This document shows, piece after piece, positions 1 to 19,365 of a DNA stretch of 64,000 nucleotides (positions within the stretch are counted from its first letter, which is position 1; each line of letters begins with the position of its first letter). Origin of the DNA: a virus; the IMG/VR virus record IMGVR_UViG_3300044640_001495, positions 62,001 through 126,000 of that record; one strand, 5' to 3'. The notes beneath the pieces are model-generated. The model was not told where the DNA came from, searched no databases, and worked only from the letters and a program-made list of their open reading frames with translations. The translations under genes and the position numbers were made by a program.

Positions 1-32
1 AGTATAAACTCAACGAAGGTAAGTAAAATATT

Positions 33-107
33 GGGCTGTTGGTATAGATGGGAACACAGTAGCTTTGCAAGCTTCAATCCCCGGTTCGATCCCGGGACGG
101 TCCACCA
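33..107 (+). tRNA. tRNA-Ala (anticodon TGC)
   Basis: A full cloverleaf can be drawn. The acceptor strands are gggctgt and acggtcc (two G-U pairs), the anticodon loop is tttgcaa with TGC, and the T arm is cccgg-ttcgatc-ccggg. Discriminator A is followed by an encoded CCA. It is the first of a series of tRNA genes mixed with small ORFs. Confidence 0.93.
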
Positions 108-124
108 AGTTTTAAGTAAGTATT

Positions 125-198
125 GCCCCTTTAGTATAATGGTATTACACCTGTTTTGTAATCAGGTTACGGCAGTTCGATTCTGTCAAGGGGCACCA
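125..198 (+). tRNA. tRNA-Thr (anticodon TGT)
   Basis: Acceptor gcccctt pairs with aaggggc. The anticodon loop is tttgtaa (TGT). The T loop is ttcgatt, and CCA is encoded after discriminator A. It lies 17 nt after the tRNA-Ala gene, probably in the same transcript. Confidence 0.92.
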
Positions 199-212
199 TT
201 TTTTAGGTACAT

Positions 213-830
213 ATGAAATTTGCATATTTTAATCCAACTGTGATGGCTGTGGCCGATGTGCCGGCGGATGTATTCACCAATTTGAAAAGTCTAGTAGATA
301 CTGCACATACCAAGACAGAACTCAATGATGAGGGTAATCCTGCTATTAGCATACGTGGCGGACAGCAGATTCAACTCTTGCCAAATCAATTCAATCTAGA
401 CACAGGGCATATCAAACGCTATGTAGAAGCGCAGTGCCAGGAATACATGGATGCGCAGATCAAACAAAGCGGTCGCAACGATCTGTCAGCATTTCAACCC
501 ATGTTGGTTTCAGCATGGACTATACGTCAGACTGCAGGCGACTATCAGGCCATGCACAATCATGAAGCACATATCAGCGGCAACATCTACATTGATGTTC
601 CTGATCTTGATCTCACAGACAACATATCGGATGCTGTGATTGAGTTTAGATTGCCGGTGGTAAGAAACCCTGCACATTTTGTTTTTGTAGATCAATGGCG
701 GTTTACCCCAAATCCCATGAAGATGATCATATTTCCCAGCTATATTCCACACACTGTGTATCCGTGGAAAGGCAAGGGCCACAGAACAATTTTGGCTTGG
801 GATGTGAAATTAGTGGCAAAAAAGACTTGA
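213..830 (+). CDS. Putative 2OG-Fe(II) oxygenase
   Basis: This 205-residue protein resembles the small phage/bacterial 2OG-Fe(II) oxygenase family often annotated TIGR02466-like. The visible marks are the HNHEAHISGNIYID stretch around residues 115-128, which supplies the HxH/SGxxY metal region. Further on is the C-terminal FPSYIPHTVYPW...HRTILAWD segment, with the distal His and the 2OG-binding Arg near residues 180-195. No substrate can be inferred. It follows two tRNA genes directly and is the first of about twelve proteins in the window with this fold. The start ATG lies 14 nt after the tRNA-Thr gene without a clear Shine-Dalgarno sequence. Confidence 0.8.
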   Translation: MKFAYFNPTVMAVADVPADVFTNLKSLVDTAHTKTELNDEGNPAISIRGGQQIQLLPNQFNLDTGHIKRYVEAQCQEYMDAQIKQSGRNDLSAFQPMLVSAWTIRQTAGDYQAMHNHEAHISGNIYIDVPDLDLTDNISDAVIEFRLPVVRNPAHFVFVDQWRFTPNPMKMIIFPSYIPHTVYPWKGKGHRTILAWDVKLVAKKT

Positions 831-855
831 CATTTAGTCTAAAGAGTGCTATAAT
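827..855 (+). promoter_or_regulatory. Consensus sigma70-type promoter upstream of rpoZ-like gene
   Basis: TTGACA at 827-832 and TATAAT at 850-855 are separated by exactly 17 nt, a perfect consensus. The predicted start near 862 leaves a leader of about 275 nt before the RpoZ-like gene. Confidence 0.85.
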
Positions 856-861
856 AGTTTT

Positions 862-1138
862 GTTGTGTAGCAATACATGACCGGTAAAGCGAAGGGTAGA
901 TGAGAATAGACACAAAGGTGTGAGCTTCATGCTTACTCCAAACTTACAACCATCTGAACAATGGCCGTGTTTATGTGATCCGATCCCTAATAGAATGTCA
1001 TTTGTTAATCGGAAATATATGGACCTCTGTGTATTGTATTTTGCACATTGTCAACGAAGACTACAACTCTTCATTGTATATTGTCCGGTCTATTACTTGA
1101 CCTTTCGTTGACCCGTTATTTTTAACCTAAAGGAATAT
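862..1138 (+). promoter_or_regulatory. Long 5' leader with inverted repeats before rpoZ-like gene
   Basis: No convincing gene lies here. It contains a short hairpin (gtgagc 920-925 with gcttac 931-936, one G-U) and a perfect 9-bp inverted repeat, gtcaacgaa at 1050-1058 with ttcgttgac at 1104-1112. Nested inside the repeat is gaaga/tcttc. A Shine-Dalgarno-like aaagga stands just before the ATG at 1139. An untranslated regulatory leader or a small RNA are both possible; I do not recognise a known family. Confidence 0.45.
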
Positions 1139-1387
1139 ATGAACAAACAACTTTCATCAGAAGACGCAGTGGCAGCATACGGCGATAGATTTGAAATGGT
1201 ATTGGCTGCAAGTCAACGAGCTCGAGAGTTGAAAAACGGTCATGCTCCTAGAGTTGATAAAGGTAGTCATGGATTTATTGTTACTGCTCTAAACGAAATC
1301 GAACAGGGCAAGTATACTAGACTTGATTTTTTAAAAACTGTTAAAACAAAGAAGAAAGGACAACGTGATGAACATTTCCCTACGTAA
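1139..1387 (+). CDS. rpoZ: RNA polymerase omega subunit-like protein (RpoZ)
   Basis: This 82-residue protein reads like bacterial omega. Residues 7-28 contain the signature EDAVAAYGDRFEMVLAASQR, followed by RARELKNG. Residues 47-57 read FIVTALNEIEQG, matching the omega pattern DAVxxxGxRFxxVLxAxxRAR...VxALxEIExG. Omega binds the beta-prime subunit and helps assemble and tune RNA polymerase. The length is about that of E. coli omega without its tail. The gene has its own consensus promoter, a long leader and a good ribosome site, and overlaps the start of the next gene by 20 nt. A phage copy could alter host polymerase assembly or promoter choice; that is inference. Confidence 0.78.
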   Translation: MNKQLSSEDAVAAYGDRFEMVLAASQRARELKNGHAPRVDKGSHGFIVTALNEIEQGKYTRLDFLKTVKTKKKGQRDEHFPT

Positions 1388-1940
1388 GGCAAACGCAGTT
1401 CAGAATTCGATCAATGAAGCAATCAAGGGTATTAAGATTGATACCAGCATTGAGATCAACGAGTTCCAGAACGCACAAGATGAGATTCAAAAGGCCAATA
1501 ACCTTTTGATCACAAATGATGGTCGCCGACAAAAGCTGTTGTTGGCCTTGTACAACATTCGCGGACTGGTTGGTACAGCCAACGCAAATTGCGGAATTGA
1601 CCTGTCATTGGCCAAGGCTGCGTTCATTGACAAGCGTGTCACACAGTTGACTGAAATAGCCACATTGAATCCAGTGAGTGACTTGGCTGTGGTCAACGGC
1701 AAGTTGGACAAGATCCGCAGCCGCAAAGAAGAAAGCCGTGCAAGTTTGTACGGCCGTGACGACACGGTATCTACCAGTGTTGTTGGACGAGATCAAATTG
1801 ATCAAGCCAAGGCAGAGATCCAAAATCTCAAGAAGCAGAAACAAAAACTCAATGATGAAGTTCTTGAGTTAAATATCAAAACTGAAATTCCACTCAGTGA
1901 TGATGTTGTAGCAACACTGCAAGCTGAAGGCTTGATCTAA
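1368..1940 (+). CDS. Conserved phage protein with coiled-coil segment
   Basis: I do not recognise a function. The 190-residue product is mostly helical in character. It has a Lys/Gln/Glu-rich heptad-like stretch near residues 150-170 (IDQAKAEIQNLKKQKQKLND) that probably forms a coiled coil. ATG 1368 is preferred to the in-frame GTG at 1365 because aaagga lies 7 nt upstream of it. The gene overlaps the end of the rpoZ-like gene, so the two are probably co-transcribed and translationally coupled. Confidence 0.7.
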   Translation: MNISLRKANAVQNSINEAIKGIKIDTSIEINEFQNAQDEIQKANNLLITNDGRRQKLLLALYNIRGLVGTANANCGIDLSLAKAAFIDKRVTQLTEIATLNPVSDLAVVNGKLDKIRSRKEESRASLYGRDDTVSTSVVGRDQIDQAKAEIQNLKKQKQKLNDEVLELNIKTEIPLSDDVVATLQAEGLI

Positions 1941-2154
1941 CAGACCCCGGGCGCCCTTGCCCGTTATACAAAGGGGGTGGGGCAGTCACCATAAAGAGTG
2001 CTAGGTTTGTAGTGCAAAGGCCTTCCGATCCTGTGTAGGGAATCCGGAGACGCATTAGGTGAGGTTTAACACCTTCCCATAAGAATAAATGTTATGGACA
2101 GAGTAACCGCTCAGTCTAGGGCTCCTGTGGTGGGAGTAGCTAGGCACTAATTAT
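1941..2154 (+). ncRNA. Candidate structured RNA between coding gene and initiator-type tRNA
   Basis: This 214-nt stretch has no good ORF but several strong helices. They are cgggc-gccctt-gcccg near 1948-1963; aggtg...cacct near 2058-2075; gat-cct-gtgt-agg-ga-atc near 2028-2045; and ctcc-tgtggt-ggag near 2122-2135, flanked by ctag/ctag. A cccc/gggg pair could close the first helix. It ends directly at the tRNA at 2155, so both probably come from one transcript. I cannot assign it to RNase P, tmRNA, 6S or a self-splicing intron. It may be an uncharacterised RNA or a leader. Confidence 0.45.
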
Positions 2155-2230
2155 CGCGGGATGGAGAAGGTGGTATCTCGGAAGTCTCATAAGCTTCAGA
2201 TCGTCGGTTCGACTCCGACTCCCGCAACCA
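2155..2230 (+). tRNA. Initiator-type tRNA (fMet-like, anticodon CAT)
   Basis: This 76-nt tRNA has acceptor cgcggga and tcccgca, giving the C1 x A72 mismatch that marks bacterial initiator tRNAs. It also has A11-U24 in the D stem, anticodon loop ctcataa and T arm gtcgg-ttcgact-ccgac, with encoded CCA. Its 5' half closely follows E. coli fMet tRNA. The anticodon stem is gaagt/gcttc, so the three consecutive G-C pairs normally required for P-site initiation are absent. Confidence 0.88.
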
Positions 2231-2240
2231 ATTTGAGGAC

Positions 2241-2993
2241 ATGATGTTTTTATTTCGAAGAAAAAAGATAATTGTAGATTGTTTTATAGATAATCCAGTT
2301 GTGCAGAATCTGTTCAAAATTGATCATGCTCATAAATTTGTTCCCGCAGAGTGGAAACAATTGCCACCTATGGTTGATGTAAAATCACTGCAGGATCCTA
2401 GAAGCAAGGAATTAATTCCAATACCAACAGCCAAGAGATGTGTTGGTATGGTCAATTTGTTTACCTCTGGATTTATACTACCTAGTTGGACAGATTTTAA
2501 AATTGAAATGATGAAGGACGGATTATTTTTTAAACATGATCCTATGGGCGGCCTAGATGCCAATCCCCATCCTCCCTTTATGTATTGGGAAGAATTGTAC
2601 AAGGGATACCAGCATGTGAAAATTTCTAGTCCTTGGTTAATCAAAGAAAAAACTGGTGTTAAATTTGCCTGGAATCAATGTACCTATCACAATACAGATA
2701 GACATGCTAACTACCATGCGTTATCGGGAATATTAGATTTTAAAGCACAGCATAATACACATGTGAATATTTTTGTGAAAAAGGGAACTACACTAACGGT
2801 TAATGCAGGTGATCCGTTGGTACAGCTTATCCCGTTAACTGAACGTGAAGTAGAATTAAAACATCATGAAGTTGATGCTAACGAGTACGAAAAGATTTCA
2901 AAAGAGTTTACTCAAAAATCTATGTGGGGAGGGCAACATAGATCATTATTAACTTCAATGCCCGCATCAAAATGTCCGTTTGGATTCAAATGA
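2241..2993 (+). CDS. Conserved hypothetical phage protein
   Basis: This 250-residue protein is of a kind seen in marine T4-like phages; I cannot name its function. A central WNQCTYHNTDRHANYHAL stretch near residues 145-162 is rich in His and polar residues. The following hydrophobic/glycine pattern with GDPLVQLIPLTERE near residues 195-208 suggests a beta-sandwich or cupin-like fold, which is a guess. A gaggac sequence precedes the tandem ATG ATG start. Its stop overlaps the start of the next small gene (ATGA), so the pair is translationally coupled. Confidence 0.72.
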   Translation: MMFLFRRKKIIVDCFIDNPVVQNLFKIDHAHKFVPAEWKQLPPMVDVKSLQDPRSKELIPIPTAKRCVGMVNLFTSGFILPSWTDFKIEMMKDGLFFKHDPMGGLDANPHPPFMYWEELYKGYQHVKISSPWLIKEKTGVKFAWNQCTYHNTDRHANYHALSGILDFKAQHNTHVNIFVKKGTTLTVNAGDPLVQLIPLTEREVELKHHEVDANEYEKISKEFTQKSMWGGQHRSLLTSMPASKCPFGFK

Positions 2994-3139
2994 AATTATA
3001 CGAAGCAACAATTAGAGTAGACGGCAAAGAATTTAAGGATCGTGTGGGTGCTAATTCGGCAGAGGAAGCACGTATGTTATTACAACAGAGACACGGTCCC
3101 AGAGCAGTACCATATGTTCCTCATATGATACCAAGTTAA
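2990..3139 (+). CDS. Small conserved phage protein (49 aa)
   Basis: A 49-residue ORF starts within the ATGA overlap at the end of the preceding gene and stops just before tRNA-Pro. It begins MKLYEATIRVDGKEFKDRV and continues with an SAEEARMLLQQRHG helix. The layout is a beta hairpin followed by a helix, as in many short phage proteins. Tight spacing, translational coupling and protein-like composition support it; function is unknown. Confidence 0.6.
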   Translation: MKLYEATIRVDGKEFKDRVGANSAEEARMLLQQRHGPRAVPYVPHMIPS

Positions 3140-3142
3140 TTT

Positions 3143-3219
3143 CGGAGTGTGGCGCAGTCTGGTAGCGCACCTGGTTTGGGACCAGGGGGTCCAAGGTTCG
3201 AATCCTTGTACTCCGACCA
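3143..3219 (+). tRNA. tRNA-Pro (anticodon TGG)
   Basis: Acceptor cggagtg pairs with tactccg. The anticodon loop is tttggga (TGG) in a cctgg/ccagg stem, and the T loop is ttcgaat. Discriminator A is followed by encoded CCA. Confidence 0.93.
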
Positions 3220-3239
3220 TTTTTTAAAAAGAGAAAACA

Positions 3240-3428
3240 ATGACTAAAGACGAATACGAAGCAGCTACAGCCACAGCCATGGCAGAGTTCCTGGCCAAGG
3301 GTGGTGTGATACAACAGATCGAAAGAAATGTCAGCAGCAGAGAAGAAGGAGCCAGTTATTCATCATGGTCTAAGAAAAAACCTTCAACTTCACCTTTGGC
3401 CAATCCTCCAGAGGATCACGAAACTTGA
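3240..3428 (+). CDS. Small hypothetical protein
   Basis: This 62-residue product is unrecognised. The N-terminal half looks helical (MTKDEYEAATATAMAEFLAK) and the C-terminal half is Ser/Lys/Pro-rich and probably disordered. A gagaaaac sequence precedes the ATG. It sits between tRNA-Pro and tRNA-Gly, as do several other short genes in this block. Confidence 0.6.
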   Translation: MTKDEYEAATATAMAEFLAKGGVIQQIERNVSSREEGASYSSWSKKKPSTSPLANPPEDHET

Positions 3429-3445
3429 TTGTTAAATAATAGTAT

Positions 3446-3519
3446 GCGGGGTTAGTTTAATGGTAAAACAGCAGATTTCCAATCTTCGGTCGAGAGTTCG
3501 ATTCTCTCACTCCGCTCCA
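3446..3519 (+). tRNA. tRNA-Gly (anticodon TCC)
   Basis: Acceptor gcggggt pairs with actccgc. The anticodon loop is tttccaa (TCC), with one mismatch in its stem. The T arm is gagag-ttcgatt-ctctc. Discriminator T is followed by encoded CCA. Confidence 0.9.
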
Positions 3520-3527
3520 AGGATATA

Positions 3528-4100
3528 ATGAAAGTAATAGATCAAAACGAAGTATTTCGCAAGTTTAATTTCAGTTCAGTAATTACACAATCTGACAATG
3601 AAGAAGCCATAGGCATTATAAAAGCAATCATTGCTGACGGGAATTACTTTACTAATAGTCCCAAATATCAAACTAAAGAAAATATATTTGCTAGACCCGA
3701 AGCTGTATGGTTAAAGTATCGTATGAGTTTTTTGTTCAGTGTATTCATGTACCTAGGACGTGAAGTAAAAGTTAATAACATGATGGCTTGGTCGTTTATG
3801 ACCAATCTTGAGAGTGCCGAGGATCGTGAAAATCTGTGGCATCATCACTGGCATCCTACTCATGACACTGCCAAAATGTTGAGTGGTGTTTTGTATCTGC
3901 ACATACCCGATGATGTTAAAGATTACGATTACTGTGGTACAGAAATGGCTCCTAACGGGCCAGCAGGTGACGGCAAGTTGTTTGTAAAACCTAGTGAATA
4001 CGCATGGTTGATCTATCCCAGTGATCAGTGGCACAGGCCGGGTGTTGTACAAAGCAATCAGTATCGTTTTATATTGGCAGCAGATATAGAATATGTTTAA
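3528..4100 (+). CDS. Putative 2OG-Fe(II) oxygenase-like protein
   Basis: This 190-residue protein has the layout of a small 2OG-Fe(II) oxygenase. A His-rich WHHHWHPTHDTAKMLSG segment lies near residues 104-120 and is followed by the strand VLYLHIPDD. A C-terminal QWHRPGVV...YRFILAAD segment could supply the distal His and the 2OG-binding Arg. The exact metal ligands cannot be assigned by eye. It lies between two tRNA-Gly genes. The start has only an aaggata sequence close upstream. Confidence 0.65.
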   Translation: MKVIDQNEVFRKFNFSSVITQSDNEEAIGIIKAIIADGNYFTNSPKYQTKENIFARPEAVWLKYRMSFLFSVFMYLGREVKVNNMMAWSFMTNLESAEDRENLWHHHWHPTHDTAKMLSGVLYLHIPDDVKDYDYCGTEMAPNGPAGDGKLFVKPSEYAWLIYPSDQWHRPGVVQSNQYRFILAADIEYV

Positions 4101-4101
4101 T

Positions 4102-4175
4102 GCGGGATTAGTTTAATGGTCAAACGAAACCTTGCCAAGGTTTAGTCAGGAGTTCGATTCTCCTATCCCGCTCCA
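4102..4175 (+). tRNA. tRNA-Gly (anticodon GCC)
   Basis: Acceptor gcgggat pairs with atcccgc. The anticodon arm is aaacc-ttgccaa-ggttt (GCC). The T loop is ttcgatt. Discriminator T is followed by encoded CCA. Its 5' half resembles tRNA-Gly(TCC) at 3446, suggesting duplication. Confidence 0.93.
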
Positions 4176-4180
4176 AATTT

Positions 4181-4255
4181 CCGGCCATAGTATAATGGAT
4201 AATACAAAGAGCTTCTACCTCTTGAATGTGGGTTCGATTCCTGCTGGCCGGACCA
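4181..4255 (+). tRNA. tRNA-Arg (anticodon TCT)
   Basis: Acceptor ccggcca pairs with tggccgg. The anticodon arm is aagag-cttctac-ctctt (TCT, reading AGA/AGG codons). Discriminator A is followed by encoded CCA. It is five nucleotides from the tRNA-Gly gene and one from the next tRNA. Confidence 0.92.
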
Positions 4256-4256
4256 C

Positions 4257-4330
4257 GCTCTTGTAGTAAAATGGTATTACACAGTCTTGGTAAGACTGAA
4301 TTCCAAGTTCAATTCTTGGCTAGAGCACCA
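4257..4330 (+). tRNA. tRNA-Thr (anticodon GGT)
   Basis: Acceptor gctcttg pairs with ctagagc, with one T-T mismatch. The anticodon arm is cagtc-ttggtaa-gactg (GGT). CCA is encoded. The perfect promoter for the next gene starts two nucleotides after its end. Confidence 0.88.
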
Positions 4331-4331
4331 C

Positions 4332-4360
4332 TTGACAAATTGAAAGAAAGACAGTATAAT
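4332..4360 (+). promoter_or_regulatory. Consensus sigma70-type promoter, leaderless mRNA predicted
   Basis: TTGACA 4332-4337 and TATAAT 4355-4360 are spaced by exactly 17 nt. Only six nucleotides separate the -10 box from the ATG at 4367, so the expected start site is the A of the start codon. Confidence 0.85.
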
Positions 4361-4366
4361 AGTCGT

Positions 4367-4591
4367 ATGTACAAAGTAATAGAAAAACAAAGCTCAACGG
4401 AGTTTGCTAATTTGGATTTAGCAATGGCATTTGCCAAAGAATTAAATGTGTTCGTTACCATCCAAGGTGGCGAATTTGAAATCGTAGGAGTATTTGGTGT
4501 AGACAGCATCAAAGATGGTAAGTGTCCAGATGGCGTTAAATACGATTGGAACAAAGCGAGCCGAATTGGCCGCGTTAAAAAGGAAAGATAA
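4367..4591 (+). CDS. Small conserved phage protein, probably from a leaderless mRNA
   Basis: The 74-residue product (MYKVIEKQSSTEFANLDLAM...) is unrecognised. It looks like a small alpha/beta protein with a basic C-terminus. The reading frame is open upstream into the tRNA genes, but the ATG at 4367 is chosen because a perfect promoter places transcription start at about this nucleotide. Transcription should continue into the IF-1 gene 7 nt downstream. Confidence 0.68.
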   Translation: MYKVIEKQSSTEFANLDLAMAFAKELNVFVTIQGGEFEIVGVFGVDSIKDGKCPDGVKYDWNKASRIGRVKKER

Positions 4592-4598
4592 AAACTAG

Positions 4599-4817
4599 AT
4601 GGCCAAAGAAGATATAATCGAATTAACAGGCGTTGTAGAAGAAGTCTTGCCCGGTAATATGTTTAAGGTAAAAGTAGACAATCTACCCAATGTCTTATTG
4701 TGCTATACTAGTGGCAGACTCAAGCAACACAAAATTCGTATCATTCTAGGCGATCGTGTCAAGGTGGAAGTTAGCCCCTATGACATGACCAAAGGCCGAG
4801 TCTCTTATAGATTGTAA
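4599..4817 (+). CDS. infA: Translation initiation factor IF-1
   Basis: This is a complete 72-residue IF-1, the usual bacterial length. It begins MAKEDIIELTGVVEEVLPGN and keeps the S1/OB-fold features MFKVKVDN, SGRLKQHKIRIILGDRVKVE and SPYDMTKGRVSYR. IF-1 binds the 30S A site and works with IF-2 and IF-3 in choosing initiator tRNA and start codons. It lies seven nucleotides after the preceding small gene and probably shares its promoter. A phage-borne IF-1 close to a phage fMet-type tRNA suggests altered translation initiation during infection, which is inference; the identification itself is strong. Confidence 0.93.
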   Translation: MAKEDIIELTGVVEEVLPGNMFKVKVDNLPNVLLCYTSGRLKQHKIRIILGDRVKVEVSPYDMTKGRVSYRL

Positions 4818-4854
4818 TAAAAGAAATTCAACAAATTGGCCCTGTTGATTTTGT

Positions 4855-4883
4855 TTGACAGGGCTTTGTTTTGACTGTATAAT
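4855..4883 (+). promoter_or_regulatory. Consensus sigma70-type promoter
   Basis: TTGACA 4855-4860 and TATAAT 4878-4883 are spaced by 17 nt. The start site near 4890 gives a short leader carrying aaagga before the ATG at 4909. Confidence 0.85.
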
Positions 4884-4908
4884 ATATACTTACACAGTAA
4901 AGGATTAT

Positions 4909-5082
4909 ATGGCAGGCAAAGCAAAATCGGTTTATTTGACTATAAACCCAAAAGGTACATTTACAACAGCATTTCACAAGGTGTTCTTTGATGCTAAAGC
5001 ATACAACGACTACATTAAGACAGATGAGTTCAAAGCTAAATGGCCTGCAGAAAAATTTGATATTGTAAAAGAAACTTACTAA
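4909..5082 (+). CDS. Small hypothetical protein
   Basis: The 57-residue protein starts MAGKAKSVYLTINPKGTF. The ATG at 4909 is chosen because it follows a perfect promoter and an aaagga ribosome site; the longer frame would run back through the promoter. It looks like a basic alpha/beta protein. Function is unknown. The phosphoesterase gene follows after 13 nt. Confidence 0.7.
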   Translation: MAGKAKSVYLTINPKGTFTTAFHKVFFDAKAYNDYIKTDEFKAKWPAEKFDIVKETY

Positions 5083-5095
5083 CAAGGAGGCAGAT

Positions 5096-5698
5096 ATGCC
5101 AAGTGTATTCTTAGTAAGCGACACGCACTTTGGACACACAGGTGTATGCCGCTTCACACGCAACGATGGTGAAAAATTAAGACCGTGGACGGATCCAGAT
5201 GAAATGGACGAAGCTATGGTTAAGGCGTGGAACGAACGGGTAAAACCCACTGACAAGGTCTACCACTTAGGTGATGTTGTTATTAACCGCAAAGCGTTAG
5301 GAACGTTACGTAGGTTAAACGGTGACAAGGTATTAATCCGCGGTAATCACGACATCTTCCGCGATGACGAGTATAGAATGTACTTTAGAGAATTACGTGC
5401 ATACCATGTTATGAACGGCATGATCTTAAGCCATATCCCGTTACACTCGGATTCGATGGGTCGTTTTGGAGTTAACATTCACGGACATTTACACTCAAAT
5501 CGAGTGCGTAAGGCCCGTGGAGTTGATGTTAAAACAGGAGAAATCTTATACAGTGATGAGATTGATCCTAGATATCATTGTGTTTGTGTAGAACAAACTC
5601 CGGACTTTGCTCCTATCTTGTTTGAAGATGTGTTAAAGCGCATCGAAGCAGAAGGCGGATCAGTAGGTTTTAAGAACGGCAACGGACCTACAATGTAA
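5096..5698 (+). CDS. Calcineurin-like metallophosphoesterase
   Basis: This 200-residue protein has the complete metallophosphoesterase motif set: SDTHFGH (residues 8-14), HLGDVV (about 58-63), IRGNHD (about 81-86), ILSHIPLH (about 110-117) and NIHGHLHS (about 127-134). These bind two metal ions for phosphoester hydrolysis. The substrate is unknown; phage members may act on nucleotides or RNA ends. A canonical aaggagg sits seven nucleotides before the ATG, and a strong terminator follows 15 nt after the stop. Confidence 0.9.
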   Translation: MPSVFLVSDTHFGHTGVCRFTRNDGEKLRPWTDPDEMDEAMVKAWNERVKPTDKVYHLGDVVINRKALGTLRRLNGDKVLIRGNHDIFRDDEYRMYFRELRAYHVMNGMILSHIPLHSDSMGRFGVNIHGHLHSNRVRKARGVDVKTGEILYSDEIDPRYHCVCVEQTPDFAPILFEDVLKRIEAEGGSVGFKNGNGPTM

Positions 5699-5713
5699 TA
5701 AACTGTGCAGTTT

Positions 5714-5745
5714 AAAATAGGGCTCTTCGGAGCTCTATTTTTTTT
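5714..5745 (+). terminator. Rho-independent terminator with UUCG loop
   Basis: A 12-bp stem (aaaatagggctc with gagctctatttt, one G-U pair) is capped by a TTCG tetraloop and runs into a T tract. It closes the tRNA/IF-1/phosphoesterase block. Confidence 0.9.
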
Positions 5746-5769
5746 GGTTCGAGGTTCTGATACAGTGGC

Positions 5770-5776
5770 ATAAATA
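5770..5776 (+). promoter_or_regulatory. T4-late-type promoter element
   Basis: ATAAATA lies 30 nt before the fibre gene start, in the short space after the terminator. It matches the TATAAATA core used by T4 gp55-type late sigma factors. Confidence 0.6.
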
Positions 5777-5806
5777 CTAGACTAACATTGCCCCGGAGTT
5801 ATTAAT

Positions 5807-7591
5807 ATGGCCTTACAAATCAGACGTGGACCGACTGCAGATCGAATGAGTTATACCCCAGTTGTGGGCGAACTTGTTTGGGATACCTCAACAAGTTCAC
5901 TGTATATTGGAAACGGTACCACTGCCGGCGGATTGCCCGCAGGTACCCTAGTCACAGAAGATGTACAAGATATTGCATCCTCAATGCTGATTAACGGCAC
6001 CCACCAAAACATTACTTTTACCTATGATGATACATTAGGTAGAATAAATTCCACATTTGATCTTTCCACATTTAATGGAACATTAACTGCTGATGGATTT
6101 ATTGGGTCACACTATGCCAACGATTCTACGCTGTTGTTAAACGCACTAACAGGTGCTGTTAATTTAAACGGAACAGTCAAAGGACACGTTATTCCGTCTA
6201 CAAACATTGCCTACGATTTAGGTAGCTCATCCTTTAGATTCAGAGATCTATATCTAAGCGGATCTAGTATTATACTTGGTAGTGCTACTATCACATCCAC
6301 AGGCTCGTCTGTTAATTTACCTGCGGGATCTACTGTAAACGGAATTGTTCTAGGTGCTGCAATTGAATCCGGAATGAATTACAACATCAATCTAGTAGGC
6401 GATGATAGCACAGTTATTATCAATGCTAGAACAAAAGCAGTCAATGCAGCCAGCTTAACCATCGGCTCAGCAGTGAATTTGCCTGCAGGATCTACTATAA
6501 ACGGAGTTGCAATTGGTGCTGGTTCAGGAATTGAAGCTGGTATGAACTACAATATTAATATTGTAGGAGATGATAGCACATTAATGCTGAATGCTAGCAC
6601 ACGGTCAATTACTGCGGCAGGTGGATTTACTGGCAATTTATTAGGTAATGTAACTGGAAATATAATAACCAATTTGATTTCATCTGCAGATTCAAGTGCT
6701 ATCATTTGCGACACTCCGATTACATTCCAAACTAACGCACGGGTTGAGGGCACTCTGAGGGTAGTAGATGGAGGCGACTTTCAATCTACGAATTACCTAA
6801 GTTTTCCTCTTGCGATCACTGCTGCTCATGAAGATGATCAAGCCGCTAGATTAGTTATAAGAAGATCTAGAGGAACAATTGATACTCCTTTATCATTAAT
6901 CAATAACGATAGAGTAGGAAGCATTCAGTTTAATGGTTATGACGGCACAAACACTATCTCAGCGGCATCAATTCAAGCAAGAGTTACTGGCACAGTATCC
7001 TCTGGCGTAATGCCCTCATCCTTGAGATTTTTAGTTACAAATACTGCAGGGAATGAACTAGAAGCAGGCCGCTTTACCGAAGCTGGAAATCTTTTTCTTT
7101 TCGCTGACGACGTTTCTGATGGACCTTTACAGATTTTTTCTGGGCATAACAGTGCTGTAAACGCCAGCAACATTATCTTAGTTAGGGCAAGAGGAGTACC
7201 AAGTTTCCCTGGACAAACTGGGACACCTTTAGCGGTTCAAAATGGAGACCCAATCTTCGACTTTGCCTTCGCTGGTTACGACGGAACAAACAATACCGGA
7301 GTAGCTCAAATGCGTGTGGTCACTGATGGTGCGGTTTCCACAGGAGTAGTTCCTGGTAGATTTGAATTTTTTACCAGCAATACCAGCGGAGTCTCTGCTA
7401 GCAGACTAACAATTGCTACAACTAAAACTACTTTTAATAATATGCCTGTGCTTCCTACATATGCCGACGAGACAGCAGCCGATACTGCTATTGGCGGATC
7501 AGGAAACAGAGTGAACGGTATGATGTACTACGACACAGGAGCAGCAAAAATAAAAGCTGTGGCCGGCGGTTCTTGGACAGCTATACATTAA
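5807..7591 (+). CDS. Tail fibre-like virion protein
   Basis: This 594-residue protein starts MALQIRRGPTADRMSYTPVV and continues with GELVWDTSTSSLYIGNGTT, the N-terminal pattern of many phage fibre/tropism proteins. The middle holds beta-rich repeats: the unit NLPAGST(V/I)NG...GMNYNIN(L/I)VGDDST occurs twice, near residues 172-206 and 225-265. The C-terminus RVNGMMYYDTGAAKIKAVAG is a common fibre end. One segment (DLGSS...LYLSGSSI, residues 133-155) is nearly shared with the fibre gene at 48745. It is preceded by a late-type promoter and flanks the metabolic island. Confidence 0.8.
   Translation: MALQIRRGPTADRMSYTPVVGELVWDTSTSSLYIGNGTTAGGLPAGTLVTEDVQDIASSMLINGTHQNITFTYDDTLGRINSTFDLSTFNGTLTADGFIGSHYANDSTLLLNALTGAVNLNGTVKGHVIPSTNIAYDLGSSSFRFRDLYLSGSSIILGSATITSTGSSVNLPAGSTVNGIVLGAAIESGMNYNINLVGDDSTVIINARTKAVNAASLTIGSAVNLPAGSTINGVAIGAGSGIEAGMNYNINIVGDDSTLMLNASTRSITAAGGFTGNLLGNVTGNIITNLISSADSSAIICDTPITFQTNARVEGTLRVVDGGDFQSTNYLSFPLAITAAHEDDQAARLVIRRSRGTIDTPLSLINNDRVGSIQFNGYDGTNTISAASIQARVTGTVSSGVMPSSLRFLVTNTAGNELEAGRFTEAGNLFLFADDVSDGPLQIFSGHNSAVNASNIILVRARGVPSFPGQTGTPLAVQNGDPIFDFAFAGYDGTNNTGVAQMRVVTDGAVSTGVVPGRFEFFTSNTSGVSASRLTIATTKTTFNNMPVLPTYADETAADTAIGGSGNRVNGMMYYDTGAAKIKAVAGGSWTAIH
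6310..6620 (+). repeat. Tandem module repeat inside fibre gene
   Basis: Two diverged copies of a module of about 160 nt encode LPAGST(V/I)NG followed by SGMNYNIN or AGMNYNIN and VGDDST. The copies begin near 6310 and 6475. This is a likely recombination hotspot for fibre length. Confidence 0.6.
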
Positions 7592-7618
7592 CAAATTTTT
7601 TATCAGTTAGGTATAAGG

Positions 7619-7625
7619 TTAAATA
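7619..7625 (+). promoter_or_regulatory. Late-type promoter element close to start codon
   Basis: TTAAATA is followed by 6 nt and then the ATG at 7632, predicting a nearly leaderless mRNA. Confidence 0.45.
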
Positions 7626-7631
7626 TCTTAT

Positions 7632-8183
7632 ATGTTAGATAAGATTTTATTCTGTCCCCTAGATATAGAATTAGATAATATAGAGTTTTCTGTAGTGGAC
7701 GGAACCCCCGTCATATCTAAATATAATCCTTATTGGAATTCTACTCTCATTTCTGATGAAACGATCAAAAAAAATAATTTTGATGAAGTTCTTAAACAAT
7801 TACCATTTGATAAGATTTCCAATTTACAATATAAAATACAACAACAGACCGTAGATTCTCACGTAGATGTTTATCCAGAAATGAAATTCGCTCCTGGAGA
7901 ATATAAACATATACTAGATACAGAACCGGCAGGGTATCGATTTATTGTAAAAGGAGCAGTTGATAGTTTAGAAGTTTTTGATGGTACATCGTGGATTACT
8001 ACTAGAGTTCCTAAAATTCCTTGTGCGTATATTTTAAATTCTACTTCTGCAATTCATAGAGTTAAAGAAGACAAACAACGAACAACGATCTATATAAGAG
8101 GTTGGTTAGATAAGGAACGACATCTAGAACTATTAGAAAAAAGCCTAGAAAAATATAGCCAATATGTTGTTTGGAAAAACTAG
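7632..8183 (+). CDS. Aspartyl/asparaginyl hydroxylase-like oxygenase
   Basis: The 183-residue protein carries SHVDVYPE (His77 and Asp79), then CAYILNSTSAIHRVKEDKQR with His142 and Arg150. This is the HxD...H...R order of cupin-fold Fe(II)/2OG oxygenases, most like the aspartyl/asparaginyl beta-hydroxylase type. The substrate is unknown. It is the first gene of the AT-rich metabolic island. Its end overlaps the convergent next gene by four nucleotides. Confidence 0.68.
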   Translation: MLDKILFCPLDIELDNIEFSVVDGTPVISKYNPYWNSTLISDETIKKNNFDEVLKQLPFDKISNLQYKIQQQTVDSHVDVYPEMKFAPGEYKHILDTEPAGYRFIVKGAVDSLEVFDGTSWITTRVPKIPCAYILNSTSAIHRVKEDKQRTTIYIRGWLDKERHLELLEKSLEKYSQYVVWKN

Positions 8184-8884
8184 TGAGTATGTTGTAGACT
8201 AGAAATTACTTTGGCAACATTCTCTGTAGTCATAGCTACATTAAGTATAAGATGTAGACTGTTATCTACCCAACTAATAGTGCGATGTGTCATCCTTGTG
8301 TTGAGATAATAGACTCTGCCATGTTCTATCTGTAGTTTTCGATCATCCATCCACCAATCATAGTCCAATGGTCCACAATTGTTTAAGAACACAATTAAAC
8401 GGAAAACATCTCTAGGCATTGACGGATGGTCTCTATGGGGGACAAAATAACCCCCTGTATCCGACCGAATCAAAAATGTCCTGCCCAACTGATCCCACTC
8501 ATCTAAAAAAGGTCTAAGACTATGGCAGGTATCGTAGACTACAGTCTTTTGACTGAACTCCAACTCACTCAGCCGGCGTTTGGCTGCATATGATGCTTGT
8601 GCTAGACTAGGATTGGTTTTATGATCTGTGCCGGGCAAACATGTAAGGGTGAGAGATTTTCTGTTATTAGGCCTGTCTGTTCTAGGAAGATAGTCTTGCC
8701 AGTCGTCTTTAAACTGTGCAATCTCCTGCATAACTTGTCCGCAGTCTATCTTCCATTTTAGCGGTTCAAAAACTCCTAAGTTGAGTAGGCTGACTTCGTT
8801 AGTAAGATTCTCTAGGCTTACGTTATTAGGCGAATAAGATTGACTTCTTCCACTTACACCTGGGGGGACCACTATATTATTCAT
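8180..8884 (-). CDS. Putative Fe(II)/2OG oxygenase (Asp/Asn hydroxylase-like)
   Basis: This 234-residue protein has VPHRDHPSMPRDVFRLIVFL around residues 147-166 (HRDH for iron binding). Later TRMTHRTISWVDNSLHLILN provides a distal His. The spacing fits small aspartyl/asparaginyl hydroxylase-like enzymes. A taaggat sequence stands 9-10 nt upstream of its ATG. It is the last gene of a minus-strand run with the PP-loop and desaturase genes, suggesting joint expression. Confidence 0.7.
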   Translation of the reverse strand: MNNIVVPPGVSGRSQSYSPNNVSLENLTNEVSLLNLGVFEPLKWKIDCGQVMQEIAQFKDDWQDYLPRTDRPNNRKSLTLTCLPGTDHKTNPSLAQASYAAKRRLSELEFSQKTVVYDTCHSLRPFLDEWDQLGRTFLIRSDTGGYFVPHRDHPSMPRDVFRLIVFLNNCGPLDYDWWMDDRKLQIEHGRVYYLNTRMTHRTISWVDNSLHLILNVAMTTENVAKVISSLQHTH

Positions 8885-8926
8885 TGACTAATCCTTAAAA
8901 ATTTTTCTAAAAGTTCTTGAAACATG

Positions 8927-9859
8927 TTATTTCGCCAATCTTCTTAGAAACTCACCAACAGGCATTTTCCATTTATCAGTATAAGGTTTATATGCTGATA
9001 AAAACTTCTGCTGTATTTGGTCACAACAATCTTGGATTAATTCGCATCCATGATATTTTTCCCTTATTTCTATATTCCAATTTTTTTGATAAATTCTATA
9101 TTTGGCATATCTAGAGTTTATAGTTTCACTTGGTGGAGATTGAAATAATTCCAACATAATAGGATCATAGCCAACTGATAACACAATTTCAGGAGTCATC
9201 TGAAAAAAATTAATAGCTGCTGTCATGTTGTTTGCTATGGCGTATCTACACCAAGATAAGATATATTCATATTCTACGTATTTCCATTCGCCATCTAATC
9301 TATTTGCATAAAAGTCACCATTCCCCAAAACAGGTATACCATTTAGGTTAAAATATACATGATCCATTAATTTCATTGTAGGCAACATTTCCGCTTGGAA
9401 ACATTTTCCTTGTTCTGCCATTCTTAGAGATTCCGGAGAACCTAACCAGGTTAGTACATCTATATCTACATAGATAACTTCAAAATTTAATTCTTTAGAT
9501 AATTTTTCAACCACTTCTATTTCGTGTAAGTTTAAATTTTTGTTAAATCTATTTGTTATAACCTTAAATGGTTGTCCTAATTCTAAGAAAGCTCTAACCA
9601 CAACTTCGCTATCAGCCCCTCCGCTTAACAACACATAAGGAAGTTTGTTCACAGTTTTTGAGTAATTGCTAATTATTTCACAGACATTGATACACTCATC
9701 TCTGAACGAGCTAGGAGTTCTAGTTGCTTTAGAGTACCAACATTGAAATGCGTCTGATTGGTGTTGTCTTAGATTGTACTGGTTTCCATTGTATCCAAAT
9801 CTAAAATTTTGATCCATCTCAAATTTTATTTTTTGACCGGATGAGCTAACAGAGTACAT
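8927..9859 (-). CDS. PP-loop ATPase (asparagine synthase-like)
   Basis: This 310-residue protein has the PP-loop signature LLSGGADSEVVVRAF at residues 77-91. Such proteins activate a carboxyl or carbonyl group by adenylation for amide or thio transfer. There is no N-terminal glutaminase domain, so it would need free ammonia or a partner amine. A gggag site 8 nt upstream supports the start at 9859, though an in-frame ATG at 9817 is possible. It overlaps the desaturase gene by 34 nt. It is paralogous in layout to the protein at 13299-14468. Confidence 0.75.
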   Translation of the reverse strand: MYSVSSSGQKIKFEMDQNFRFGYNGNQYNLRQHQSDAFQCWYSKATRTPSSFRDECINVCEIISNYSKTVNKLPYVLLSGGADSEVVVRAFLELGQPFKVITNRFNKNLNLHEIEVVEKLSKELNFEVIYVDIDVLTWLGSPESLRMAEQGKCFQAEMLPTMKLMDHVYFNLNGIPVLGNGDFYANRLDGEWKYVEYEYILSWCRYAIANNMTAAINFFQMTPEIVLSVGYDPIMLELFQSPPSETINSRYAKYRIYQKNWNIEIREKYHGCELIQDCCDQIQQKFLSAYKPYTDKWKMPVGEFLRRLAK

Positions 9860-10593
9860 GCATCAAACTCCCATTTTTTTCCGCTTACAGATTTTCCAAA
9901 ATCAAAACTAGACGGCATTTGATGATGATTATTATGCCATCCGTTTCCCCAAAACATTAAGCCTAACATAGGGATATTTCTTGATTTATCTTTAGTTTCA
10001 AAATTTCTATATCCAACGTTGTCACTATGACAGAATGTATTAATAAGTCCCTCACCATGAAATGCAACAATTGTTGGCACAATAGCAAACCAATATAATA
10101 AATTTAAATCAATCAATCCCAGAACTATCCACGATAACAAAATAATTACTTCATAATACTTGGCTGTGAATGCCATTTTTTTATCACGTACTAGGTCAAC
10201 AGCAAACTTGTAGTTTACATTGGTAGGATCATGTTTTAAAATCCAACCCACAAAAGCATGCCATCTTCCAAAAATTGGAGAATGTTCGTCTTTTTCTGTA
10301 TCGGCAAATCTATGATGATATCCTCGGTGTACCGCGGCCCACCAGATTGGATGACCCTGGCATGATAACACACTGGCATAAATTATCAAATTCTCTGCCC
10401 ATGATTTTAAAATGATCGATCTATGAGATGCCCATCTATGAAGTCCTATTGCTACTCCGTACCCACCAATAAAAATATAGCCTGCTAGAAAATACAATAG
10501 ACTGGTAAAATTGTAATCTACGAAAAAAAACAACAAAACCAATAGTATGTGTAAAGGGAAAAACGTAGTTAACAGGTATTTGTAATTTTTCAT
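9826..10593 (-). CDS. Membrane fatty acid desaturase
   Basis: This 255-residue protein has all three di-iron His boxes: HRWASH (52-57), HRGYHH (89-94) and WHNNHH (219-224). Hydrophobic membrane segments lie at residues 8-45 and about 145-175. It belongs to the acyl-CoA/acyl-lipid delta-9 desaturase family, which inserts double bonds in fatty acyl chains at the membrane. It is one of three desaturases in the island. The gene overlaps the following PP-loop gene, suggesting coupled expression. Confidence 0.9.
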   Translation of the reverse strand: MKNYKYLLTTFFPLHILLVLLFFFVDYNFTSLLYFLAGYIFIGGYGVAIGLHRWASHRSIILKSWAENLIIYASVLSCQGHPIWWAAVHRGYHHRFADTEKDEHSPIFGRWHAFVGWILKHDPTNVNYKFAVDLVRDKKMAFTAKYYEVIILLSWIVLGLIDLNLLYWFAIVPTIVAFHGEGLINTFCHSDNVGYRNFETKDKSRNIPMLGLMFWGNGWHNNHHQMPSSFDFGKSVSGKKWEFDACTLLAHPVKK

Positions 10594-16964: not shown

Positions 16965-17795
16965 TTATTTTATTGTGACACGATACAGGGATCGTCGGTG
17001 CCCGTCATATCCACCAGTAGCTCTGTGTAAGGTACAACGATTATCCCAGAGCACTAGTTGATTATTAGCCCACCGATGTGTATAGATAAATTTTGGATTT
17101 TTCTGGTGATTAAAAATTTCTGCTAGTATTTTGTAAGATTTATCTTTGTCTAAACCTTCAATTCCAATAGTATAACCTCGATTGCAGTTGATTACTTTCT
17201 TTCCTGTTTCAGGATGCTCCAACACCAACGGATGATGTTGGATCTCATACGCTTCATCTGAATATCTAAGTTTCATTGACCTACCAACATCTGACACCCC
17301 GTATCTAGCATCGGGCGCATACCCGCGTCTAGCAGAATTTATTCCTCGATGATTTTCTAAAATCTGTTTAAGGTCATCGTGAAGTGTGTCGTATGCTTTA
17401 TACAGATCGGAAAATAGTGTATCGCCACCACTCGGTGGAATTTCTTTAGCATATAATGCAGTTCCTTTTGGTGGCTCTTTCATGTGGAACCAATCAGAAT
17501 GCCAACCTTCGGCAAATATTTCAGTAGATTCGTTAGGCTCTCTCAGCACTTCTGCTACATAGTCTGATCCGTTAATTGGATCAATAAACGGATCTCGACA
17601 ATGCTCACCAAAATATAATACAAATTTTTCCAAGTCATTCACTGTAAGATGCTGATCAACAAAAATCAATACTTGGTACTTATTCCATAATTCTTTTATT
17701 TCCGTTATGTAGTGTGAATCTATTTTGGAAGAAAAATCTACGCCACTAATATAGGCGCCGTATTGAGTGTCTGTTGGAGTAATTGAAATTTTCAT
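16965..17795 (-). CDS. TauD/TfdA-family 2OG dioxygenase
   Basis: This 276-residue protein has the full TauD/TfdA set. EGWHSDWFHMKEPPKGTALY (residues 96-115) contains HxD; SGGDTLFSDLYKAYDTL follows. HRWANNQLVLWDNRCTLHRA near residues 242-261 carries the distal His, and the closing RRSLYRVTI the 2OG Arg. The family hydroxylates small molecules such as taurine, or acts in natural-product pathways. The stop codon of the adjacent desaturase gene overlaps its start. Confidence 0.88.
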   Translation of the reverse strand: MKISITPTDTQYGAYISGVDFSSKIDSHYITEIKELWNKYQVLIFVDQHLTVNDLEKFVLYFGEHCRDPFIDPINGSDYVAEVLREPNESTEIFAEGWHSDWFHMKEPPKGTALYAKEIPPSGGDTLFSDLYKAYDTLHDDLKQILENHRGINSARRGYAPDARYGVSDVGRSMKLRYSDEAYEIQHHPLVLEHPETGKKVINCNRGYTIGIEGLDKDKSYKILAEIFNHQKNPKFIYTHRWANNQLVLWDNRCTLHRATGGYDGHRRSLYRVTIK

Positions 17796-18553
17796 AATTT
17801 AAAAAATTTGTTTATAATTATACCAAAAAAGTCATAGTCGTGAGATTCTACTTTGGTAGTAGAGCTTGCCGCATATGCGTGGTGATTATTATGGAGGTGA
17901 CCTCCTTTTAAAAGAAAAACCATTGCTCTTGAATTTTTGTTTCTGCTACTTTCCCCTGTGATAAAATCTTGTGTTCCTATTCCGTCATGGCAATAAATGT
18001 TTACCAATCCGTTTAAATACAATCCCAATATTGCTGAAAAACTAAAAATATAAACATAAGAAACGAGCCCAAAAAGAAATATAAAGATTATAGAAAATCC
18101 TATATATAATTCATAATACCATTTGGCAAGAAATCTAAATCTAAAATCTTTTAGGTAGTCCCGTACCATCGACGGATTTACTGAAATAGGATTTAACCAG
18201 TATAGAACTTTTAATTTTCCTTTAAGTGGAGTATGCGGATCTTTTTCTGTATCAGTAAATGCATGATGCATTCGATGTATACCTACATAGGATAACAACG
18301 GCCCTTGCATATTAAAGAAATGTAAAAAAATCAATAAATTCTCTTTAAATTTTGTAGTCTTAAAACTTTTATGTGTGAAATATCTATGGGCACCTATCTC
18401 GTCGCCTATACCTTTAAATAATTCTTTAGCAATTAAGCCAGCAATTATTCCTAAAAAACTAAAATGATAAAACAACACCCAAAGTAAAAGTCCATGTTGA
18501 ATCAATATTAACGAATGATGATAGCGATGAAAGGTGTAAGTTCCTATCTGCAT
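17792..18553 (-). CDS. Membrane fatty acid desaturase
   Basis: The 253-residue protein has three His boxes: AHRYFTH (near residue 53), HRMHHAFTDTEKDPHTP (near 90) and HLHNNHHAY (near 222). Hydrophobic segments lie between them. It is an acyl-lipid/acyl-CoA desaturase family member, clearly diverged from the other two copies in the window. It overlaps or abuts the TauD-like gene and the third desaturase gene on the minus strand, forming a three-gene run. Confidence 0.9.
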   Translation of the reverse strand: MQIGTYTFHRYHHSLILIQHGLLLWVLFYHFSFLGIIAGLIAKELFKGIGDEIGAHRYFTHKSFKTTKFKENLLIFLHFFNMQGPLLSYVGIHRMHHAFTDTEKDPHTPLKGKLKVLYWLNPISVNPSMVRDYLKDFRFRFLAKWYYELYIGFSIIFIFLFGLVSYVYIFSFSAILGLYLNGLVNIYCHDGIGTQDFITGESSRNKNSRAMVFLLKGGHLHNNHHAYAASSTTKVESHDYDFFGIIINKFFKL

Positions 18554-19365
18554 TAGTCTGTTCCTGTTCTAAGCGATCCAGGTTTAGCTATCAGCTCAAT
18601 AATTCGTCTAGCAAAATCAAAATCTCCAGGATGTGTTTCGTAGCTGTAATGTCCGGGACGTGCATGATGATTATTGTGCAGTCCGCTGCCCAGTGTAATC
18701 CAATTAAAGATACCCCTTAAATTTCTGCTGTTATCCCCTGTTTCATGTTCTCTAGTTCCATAGTTTGGCGTATGTCCAAAAGTTGCAATTATTGCTTCAC
18801 TGTGTGTTTGTAGAACTCCAGCACCCATAAAAAAGAAAACGGCCAATTCCCATTTTATAACAAATAACAATACAAATGTGATCCAGAAAATTTTATAGTA
18901 ATGATCGCTCATAAATTTCATTACAGGATCCCTAAGCATTTTTCTACAAAACATTGGGTTAAGTTTAGGAGGATTGTTCTGCCATGTCAAATACGCATGC
19001 CAAAAACCTTTAGTAGGAGTATGAGGATCTAGATCAGTATCACTATATCTATGATGATAGGGAGTATGTATGTTTGCCATCCAAACTGGACTGCCTCTAC
19101 CTGCTAGCAGTCCTAGATATACTCCAACAATTTCTAAAATTTTATGCGTCTGGAAGGCAGAATGTGAAATATACCTATGATAGAAAATATTAAATCCAAT
19201 GAATCCAATAAAGAACCATCCTACATACGCAGCTAACAGCCACCATGCCGATGTCATATCTAACAGTACCATCGCGATACCACTGATAAATATCACATGC
19301 TGCGGTATCGTTATTGTTCTTAGATTTTTATTGATTGAAATTTTTTGTAGTAGATTTGTTAACAT
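18553..19365 (-). CDS. Membrane fatty acid desaturase
   Basis: This 270-residue protein has YHRYISHSAF (near residue 62), HTPYHHRYSDTDLDPHTP (near 99) and GLHNNHHARPG (near 233), the three di-iron His boxes. It also has several hydrophobic spans. It is the first gene of a minus-strand run: desaturase, desaturase, TauD-like dioxygenase. The TTAAATA element 5 nt before its ATG predicts a leaderless transcript. Three distinct desaturases suggest sequential desaturation of one acyl chain or different acyl positions. Confidence 0.9.
   Translation of the reverse strand: MLTNLLQKISINKNLRTITIPQHVIFISGIAMVLLDMTSAWWLLAAYVGWFFIGFIGFNIFYHRYISHSAFQTHKILEIVGVYLGLLAGRGSPVWMANIHTPYHHRYSDTDLDPHTPTKGFWHAYLTWQNNPPKLNPMFCRKMLRDPVMKFMSDHYYKIFWITFVLLFVIKWELAVFFFMGAGVLQTHSEAIIATFGHTPNYGTREHETGDNSRNLRGIFNWITLGSGLHNNHHARPGHYSYETHPGDFDFARRIIELIAKPGSLRTGTD

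What the first reader, a model, noticed from the sequence alone, without database searches (positions are those of the whole stretch)
4367..4817. Phage-encoded translation initiation factor IF-1
A complete 72-residue IF-1 sits inside a phage tRNA/early-gene block behind a perfect promoter. Phages usually bring tRNAs, not initiation factors. It could reset start-codon or mRNA selection during infection.
Basis: partly seen in the sequence, partly recalled or inferred. Interest (0 to 1): 0.88.

Follow-up and report, generated by a model that had tools for sequence, protein, structure and literature searches.

The report
Phage IF-1 beside odd initiator tRNA
A 353-kb bacterial virus carries its own intact copy of translation initiation factor IF-1, which is already known from other huge phages; 2.4 kb upstream it also carries an initiator-type tRNA lacking the three G-C pairs thought to mark such tRNAs in all life, and together they suggest that the virus brings its own way of starting protein synthesis.

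Summary
ORF 4599-4817 is a complete 72-aa IF-1: TIGR00008 90 bits (cut-off 61), Pfam 69 bits (cut-off 30), and the best fold matches are all solved IF-1s. It follows a 74-aa ORF behind a perfect sigma-70 promoter, inside a tRNA block of a 353-kb phage record. Phage IF-1 is not new: Al-Shayeb 2020 lists IF1 and IF3 in huge phages, and Lak, Jug and Phosso phages carry IF-1-type genes. This copy belongs to a large phage-only clade (245 IMG/VR stretches; 80 fetched, all intact; dN/dS about 0.05), at most 59-60% identical to cellular IF-1, with fixed changes on its 30S-facing side. New here is its neighbour: tRNA-Met 2155-2230 is initiator-type (C1xA72), but its anticodon stem lacks the three G-C pairs (A29-U41, G30-C40, U31.G39). 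That stem is invariant in all 14 distinct initiator-type tRNAs of related loci and absent from 185 sampled gammaproteobacterial genomes. With bS21 and peptide deformylase this looks like a phage initiation kit. A strict IF-1/tRNA partnership is not supported: 12 of 15 large contigs with this tRNA show no IF-1. Nothing functional was tested.

The parts
4599..4817 (+). infA-like gene: translation initiation factor IF-1, 72 aa
   Evidence: purifying selection, dN/dS about 0.05; OB fold matching IF-1s
4367..4591 (+). 74-aa ORF of unknown family, first gene of the same predicted transcript, predicted leaderless (ATG 6 nt after the -10 box)
   Evidence: the 6-nt spacing is kept in the related loci with this arrangement although the spacer sequence varies
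4332..4360 (+). Perfect sigma-70 promoter TTGACA-17-TATAAT in front of ORF74 and IF-1
4838..4865 (+). Terminator-like stem-loop with T-rich tail after IF-1 (overlaps the next perfect promoter, 4855-4883)
   Evidence: a consensus match only
2155..2230 (+). Initiator-type tRNA-Met(CAU): C1xA72, G2-C71, C3-G70, A11-U24, encoded CCA, but anticodon stem A29-U41/G30-C40/U31.G39 in place of three G-C pairs
4102..4330 (+). tRNA-Gly(gcc), tRNA-Arg(tct), tRNA-Thr(ggt) immediately upstream of the promoter
33..3519 (+). Earlier part of the tRNA block: Ala, Thr, initiator-type Met, Pro and Gly tRNAs interleaved with ORFs; the block begins at about position 58,125 of the record

Best explanation
The gene makes a genuine bacterial-type IF-1 that occupies the A site of the host 30S subunit during infection, supplementing or displacing host IF-1. 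It is one piece of a phage set acting at the start of translation: IF-1, an initiator-type tRNA with formylation determinants but a relaxed anticodon stem, bS21 and peptide deformylase, alongside tRNAs for nearly all amino acids and a tmRNA. Shown: the gene, its family, its intactness under selection, its promoter layout, the tRNA and its conserved stem, and the other genes. Inferred: expression, ribosome binding, and the direction of the effect, which I take to be keeping initiation going, and biased to phage mRNAs, when host initiation components are limiting or attacked.
For: IF-1 identity. Maintained: 80 fetched relatives all 72 aa, dN/dS median 0.045. Residues that contact 30S in IF1 (PMC10913371) are kept or stay basic: K39 (K/R), R46 (R/K), Y60, R66, and also R70. 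Fixed clade-wide changes fall on that face: LPN to LPG in the loop that enters h44, H35 to Y, R41 to K (contacts A1492/A1493), K42 to Q, Y44 to K, and loss of the C-terminal basic residue. Other pieces: bS21, deformylase, tRNAs and tmRNA. The initiator-type tRNA lies 2.4 kb upstream in the same block, and upstream of IF-1 in many related loci; its stem is invariant while 27:43 and 28:42 covary. 16 of 30 IF-1-bearing phage records carry this tRNA stem and 2 a canonical one.
Against: No expression, binding or infection data. IF-1 is a conserved small protein, so a spare copy giving only dosage would look much the same. 12 of 15 large contigs with the odd tRNA show no IF-1, and Lak-B5 and one 497-kb record have IF-1 with a canonical initiator stem, so the parts are not strictly linked. 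No IF3 or formyltransferase was found in the record. bS21 lies 33 kb away.
Confidence: 0.6

Rival explanations
1. Dosage or back-up: phage IF-1 is functionally the same as host IF-1 and only keeps its level up during infection. It has no selectivity and no link to the tRNA.
For: Most 30S-contact residues are kept; other phage IF-1s fall in several separate places of the tree; the odd tRNA occurs without IF-1.
Against: Clade-wide fixed changes at positions nearly invariant in the sampled bacteria (N19, R41, Y44, L48) are not expected of a plain copy, though drift in one lineage could fix them.
Confidence: 0.3
2. Co-adapted pair: phage IF-1 is tuned so that the initiator-type tRNA without the three G-C pairs passes proofreading by IF3 and the 30S head.
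For: Both lie in one tRNA block in the window phage and many relatives; three other phage IF-1 lineages also sit in records with the same tRNA stem. The three pairs are normally needed: a mutant with all three replaced is inactive in E. coli (PMC10486304).
Against: 12 of 15 large contigs with the tRNA show no IF-1 (fragments, so not final). The relaxed stem keeps G30-C40, the pair whose swap alone cuts translation 20-fold (PMC11497404), and may work with host factors alone.
Confidence: 0.15
3. Anti-defence: the initiator-type tRNA is a replacement resistant to host nucleases such as VapC, which cut tRNA-fMet between anticodon stem and loop; IF-1 belongs to the same compensation for host-inflicted damage to translation.
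For: VapC homologues cut tRNA-fMet at the stem/loop junction in a sequence- and structure-specific way (PMC8522696); phage tRNAs are proposed to carry nuclease-evading anticodon-loop changes (PMC10264068). C39 to G39 changes that junction, and the loci with this tRNA are tRNA-rich (mean 12 per stretch).
Against: The loop itself (CTCATAA) is unchanged here; nothing ties IF-1 to such nucleases; the host and its nucleases are unknown.
Confidence: 0.25
4. The gene encodes another small OB-fold protein (cold-shock or S1 type), or the contig is host chromosome.
For: The OB fold is shared; a weak match to the RsgA N-terminal domain.
Against: IF-1 scores far above cut-offs while S1 and RsgA stay below theirs. 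Foldseek ranks bacterial IF-1 structures first. Phage structural and replication genes lie on the contig.
Confidence: 0.01

Closest known systems
IF1 genes of huge phages (Al-Shayeb et al. 2020, PMC7162821)
   Same: Phage-borne IF1 in >200-kb genomes with tRNAs and rpS21, proposed there to intercept and redirect host translation.
   Different: This clade is large and separate, with its own fixed substitutions; the passages read do not describe a non-canonical initiator tRNA beside IF1.
IF-1 of Lak, Phosso and Jug phages
   Same: Complete IF-1; annotated as such in Phosso; 'initiation factor 1A' is a conserved gene of Jug phages (PMC12363816).
   Different: Lak-B5 and Phosso IF-1 are about 51-52% identical to the window protein and lie elsewhere in the tree; Lak-B5 has a canonical initiator stem.
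Bacterial IF-1 (infA), e.g. E. coli and T. thermophilus 1HR0
   Same: Length, OB fold, most 30S-contact residues.
   Different: Roughly 45-60% identity; one-residue insertion in the turn before strand 3; changes at N19, H35, R41, K42, Y44 and the C-terminal end.
Phage Met(CAU) tRNAs of E. coli phages JohannJBalmer (Bas62) and phi92
   Same: The same AGU/GCU anticodon stem; annotated tRNA-fMet or tRNA-Met.
   Different: Their loop is TTCATAT and their acceptor ends differ; these phages were not among the records with an IF-1 match.

Membership tests
Bacterial translation initiation factor IF-1 (TIGR00008/PF01176) | Full-length match above curated cut-offs | tested here: met
   90.3 vs 61.15 bits, profile 1-69 of 69; 69 vs 30.2 bits, profile 1-64 of 64
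Bacterial translation initiation factor IF-1 (TIGR00008/PF01176) | Five-stranded OB barrel with a short helix between strands 3 and 4 | tested here: met
   AlphaFold2 pLDDT 79.6; E7-17 E21-26 E32-37 H39-43 E53-58 E65-71; best PDB matches are IF-1
Bacterial translation initiation factor IF-1 (TIGR00008/PF01176) | Residues that contact 30S (K39, R41, R46, Y60, R66) and the critical R70 | tested here: met
   Basic at 39, 41 (K) and 46, and Y60, R66, R70 in the whole clade; R41 is replaced by K (roles)
Bacterial translation initiation factor IF-1 (TIGR00008/PF01176) | Binds the 30S A site and supports initiation | not testable with these tools
   Needs purified components or infA depletion
Bacterial initiator tRNA (tRNA-fMet), for 2155-2230 | Mismatch at 1:72 and formylation determinants G2-C71, C3-G70, A11-U24 | tested here: met
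   C1xA72, G2-C71, C3-G70, A11-U24 read from the sequence (tallies; list of determinants from PMC7949028)
Bacterial initiator tRNA (tRNA-fMet), for 2155-2230 | Three consecutive G-C pairs in the anticodon stem | tested here: not met
   A29-U41, G30-C40, U31.G39 in 14 of 14 distinct related tRNAs
Bacterial initiator tRNA (tRNA-fMet), for 2155-2230 | Formylated and used in the P site at start codons | not testable with these tools
   Biochemistry needed; it is called initiator-type here for that reason

The most novel reading that the evidence does not exclude
These phages run a partly private initiation pathway: a conserved class of initiator tRNA without the three G-C pairs, common in phages and found in none of 185 sampled gammaproteobacterial genomes, starts phage proteins on ribosomes carrying phage IF-1 and bS21, and so escapes host control or nucleases aimed at host tRNA-fMet.
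Probability: 0.2. Interest if true: 0.85.

Novelty: new variant of a known kind. Interest (0 to 1): 0.55.

Why it matters
Phage IF-1 by itself extends a known list. The added observation makes an old question testable: whether the three G-C pairs, described as conserved in initiator tRNAs of all domains of life, are really required. Phages carry a conserved class without them, and phages grown on laboratory E. coli (Bas62, phi92) carry a Met tRNA with the same stem. If it initiates, it shows how initiation can be rewired during infection; if it resists nucleases that cut tRNA-fMet, it explains why phages carry it.

Tried and rejected
Other OB-fold protein or host chromosome: rejected. IF3 and formyltransferase in the same record: none found. 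Strict pairing of IF-1 with the odd tRNA: weakened. Host origin from the tree: 73 columns cannot resolve it. The clade is one side of a branch (SH-aLRT 93, below the starred level); its join with one long bacterial branch may be an artefact. Host: a permuted, betaproteobacterial-type tmRNA hints at a betaproteobacterium, unproven. Megablast of window 1-9000 against cultured phages: no match. Invariance of the stem within the pattern scan is by construction; only the 14 tRNAs of the IF-1 loci count as evidence. Literature searches for phage initiator tRNAs without three G-C pairs found none in the held library; most subscription papers were not searchable. The IF-1 hit in 'Acinetobacter phage MD-2021a' lies among chromosome-like genes and was counted as bacterial.

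Full report
What was checked. The window is bases 62001-126000 of a 353,123-bp virus record. ORF 4599-4817 on the + strand encodes 72 residues. It scores 90.3 bits against the infA equivalog model (cut-off 61.15) and 69 bits against Pfam eIF-1a (cut-off 30.2); S1 and RsgA matches stay below their cut-offs. All twelve PDB sequences found are IF-1s. An AlphaFold2 model (pLDDT 79.6) has the IF-1 layout, and Foldseek's best PDB matches are bacterial IF-1s, TM about 0.9 to the E. coli and T. thermophilus 30S-bound forms.

The contig is a phage. It carries a clamp loader, a PhoH-like protein, a thymidylate synthase, a virion structural protein and a tail/baseplate match. Its clamp loader resembles those of 1,721 phage records, best 55.6% in PA5oct-like Pseudomonas phages. 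ARAGORN finds 32 tRNA genes and a tmRNA, which Rfam matches as permuted and betaproteobacterial-type.

Transcript layout. A perfect TTGACA-17-TATAAT lies at 4332-4360; such sites number 6 in the window against 0.02 expected. The -10 box ends 6 nt before ATG 4367, where a 74-aa ORF of unknown family starts. IF-1 follows 7 nt after that ORF, then a terminator-like stem at 4838-4865. In the whole record 7 of 46 such promoters have an ATG-started ORF 5-6 nt after the -10 box, where 0.46 are expected (P 5e-7). These genes are therefore likely to be read from leaderless mRNAs. In relatives with the same arrangement the 6-nt distance is kept while the bases between change. In L056 the first ORF is missing and IF-1 follows the same kind of promoter directly.

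Relatives. A scan of IMG/VR found 245 stretches coding for relatives; 80 were fetched, at 79-100% identity, and all are intact 72-aa proteins. Median dN/dS over 232 usable pairs is 0.045. The best cellular match is 59% identical. In a 126-row tree the clade is one side of a branch (SH-aLRT 93) and the IF-1s of other phages fall in several other places, which suggests that phages acquired IF-1 more than once. With 73 columns most forks are unresolved.

Residues. In E. coli numbering K3, G11, L17, P18, G38, I45, G50, D51, P59, Y60, D61, R66 and R70 are kept, and positions 39 and 46 stay basic. Fixed in all 38 clade rows (37 distinct proteins) and rare or absent in 79 bacterial sequences are N19 to G, H35 to Y, M40 to L, R41 to K, K42 to Q, Y44 to K, L48 to I, and a lost C-terminal basic residue. 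According to PMC10913371, K39 and residue 42 contact the 530 loop, R41 and R46 contact A1492/A1493, the loop between strands 1 and 2 enters helix 44, and H35, Y60, R64 and R66 face S12. The changes thus gather on the 30S-facing side. What they do is unknown.

The initiator-type tRNA. Of three Met(CAU)-type tRNAs in the record, the one at 2155-2230 has C1xA72, G2-C71, C3-G70 and A11-U24, the initiator and formylation features listed in PMC7949028. Its anticodon stem is A29-U41, G30-C40, U31.G39 instead of three G-C pairs. Every initiator-type tRNA found in the IF-1 loci has this stem. Over 14 distinct sequences, not chosen for the stem, pairs 27:43 and 28:42 take four and three forms with compensation, while 29:41, 30:40 and 31:39 never vary. 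The stem occurs in at least 119 IMG/VR stretches (the scan stopped at its limit). It was found in 0 of 185 genomes sampled from the class of a Pseudomonadales genome (Gammaproteobacteria), where the canonical stem is in 167. Two cultured E. coli phages, phi92 and JohannJBalmer (Bas62), have a Met tRNA with the same stem.

What is known of the three pairs. PMC7949028 calls them highly conserved in all domains of life. A mutant with all three replaced is inactive in initiation (PMC10486304). 16S rRNA A1339 and G1338 grip pairs 30-40 and 29-41, and swapping 30-40 alone cuts translation 20-fold (PMC11497404). The phage tRNA keeps G30-C40. Whether it initiates is the open question.

Are IF-1 and the tRNA a pair? 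Of 30 IF-1-bearing records, 16 show the phage stem and 2 the canonical one (Lak-B5 and a 497-kb record); 12 show neither, nine of them fragments under 80 kb. Conversely, of 15 large contigs with the phage stem only 3 have IF-1. They often travel together, but neither seems to need the other.

Other initiation genes in the record: bS21 and peptide deformylase. IF3 and formyltransferase were not found.

Reading. IF-1 identity is close to certain. That it acts on host 30S subunits during infection follows from knowledge of the family and from purifying selection, and is not shown. The most likely account is a phage set for translation initiation. Plain dosage, a co-adapted pair, and nuclease evasion are rivals that the proposed tests separate. 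Phage IF-1 is a known kind (PMC7162821). The conserved initiator-type tRNA without the three pairs, in the same block, is the part for which I found no earlier report.

Noticed in passing
Record positions 24,882-25,318 (L083:4880-5227), outside the window: A permuted tmRNA (Rfam tmRNA_permuted 120.5 bits, beta_tmRNA 102 bits): a phage-borne two-piece tmRNA of betaproteobacterial type.
   Followed up: partly
L558 and L559 (phi92, JohannJBalmer/Bas62): Cultured E. coli phages carry Met(CAU) tRNAs with the same AGU/GCU anticodon stem and an unusual TTCATAT loop; usable laboratory systems.
   Followed up: partly
Record positions 310,302-337,487, minus strand: A dense run of perfect or near-perfect TTGACA-17-TATAAT promoters in front of many small ORFs, many with GGAG-type ribosome sites; a likely early region.
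   Followed up: no
L181 (CAKLQH020000005.1): The infA of 'Acinetobacter phage MD-2021a' sits near truA, leuB and ansA: the record looks like host chromosome mislabelled as phage.
   Followed up: partly
L185 (OR846589.1) and several 'Listeria phage LM' records: Unverified, unannotated 'phage' contigs with bacterial-like IF-1s; possibly bacterial contamination.
   Followed up: no
Window 213-830, 3528-4100, 9826-10593, 17792-19365: 2OG-Fe(II) oxygenase-like genes, and three ORFs whose sequences look by eye like fatty-acid desaturases, in a phage.
   Followed up: no
L056:60-400: Relative in which the 74-aa ORF is missing and IF-1 begins 22 nt after the leaderless ATG, as if the first gene had been deleted.
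   Followed up: partly
Loci: Viral initiator-type tRNAs show further departures from three G-C pairs (AGG/CCT, AGC/GCT, TGG/CCA), nearly all keeping G30-C40.
   Followed up: partly
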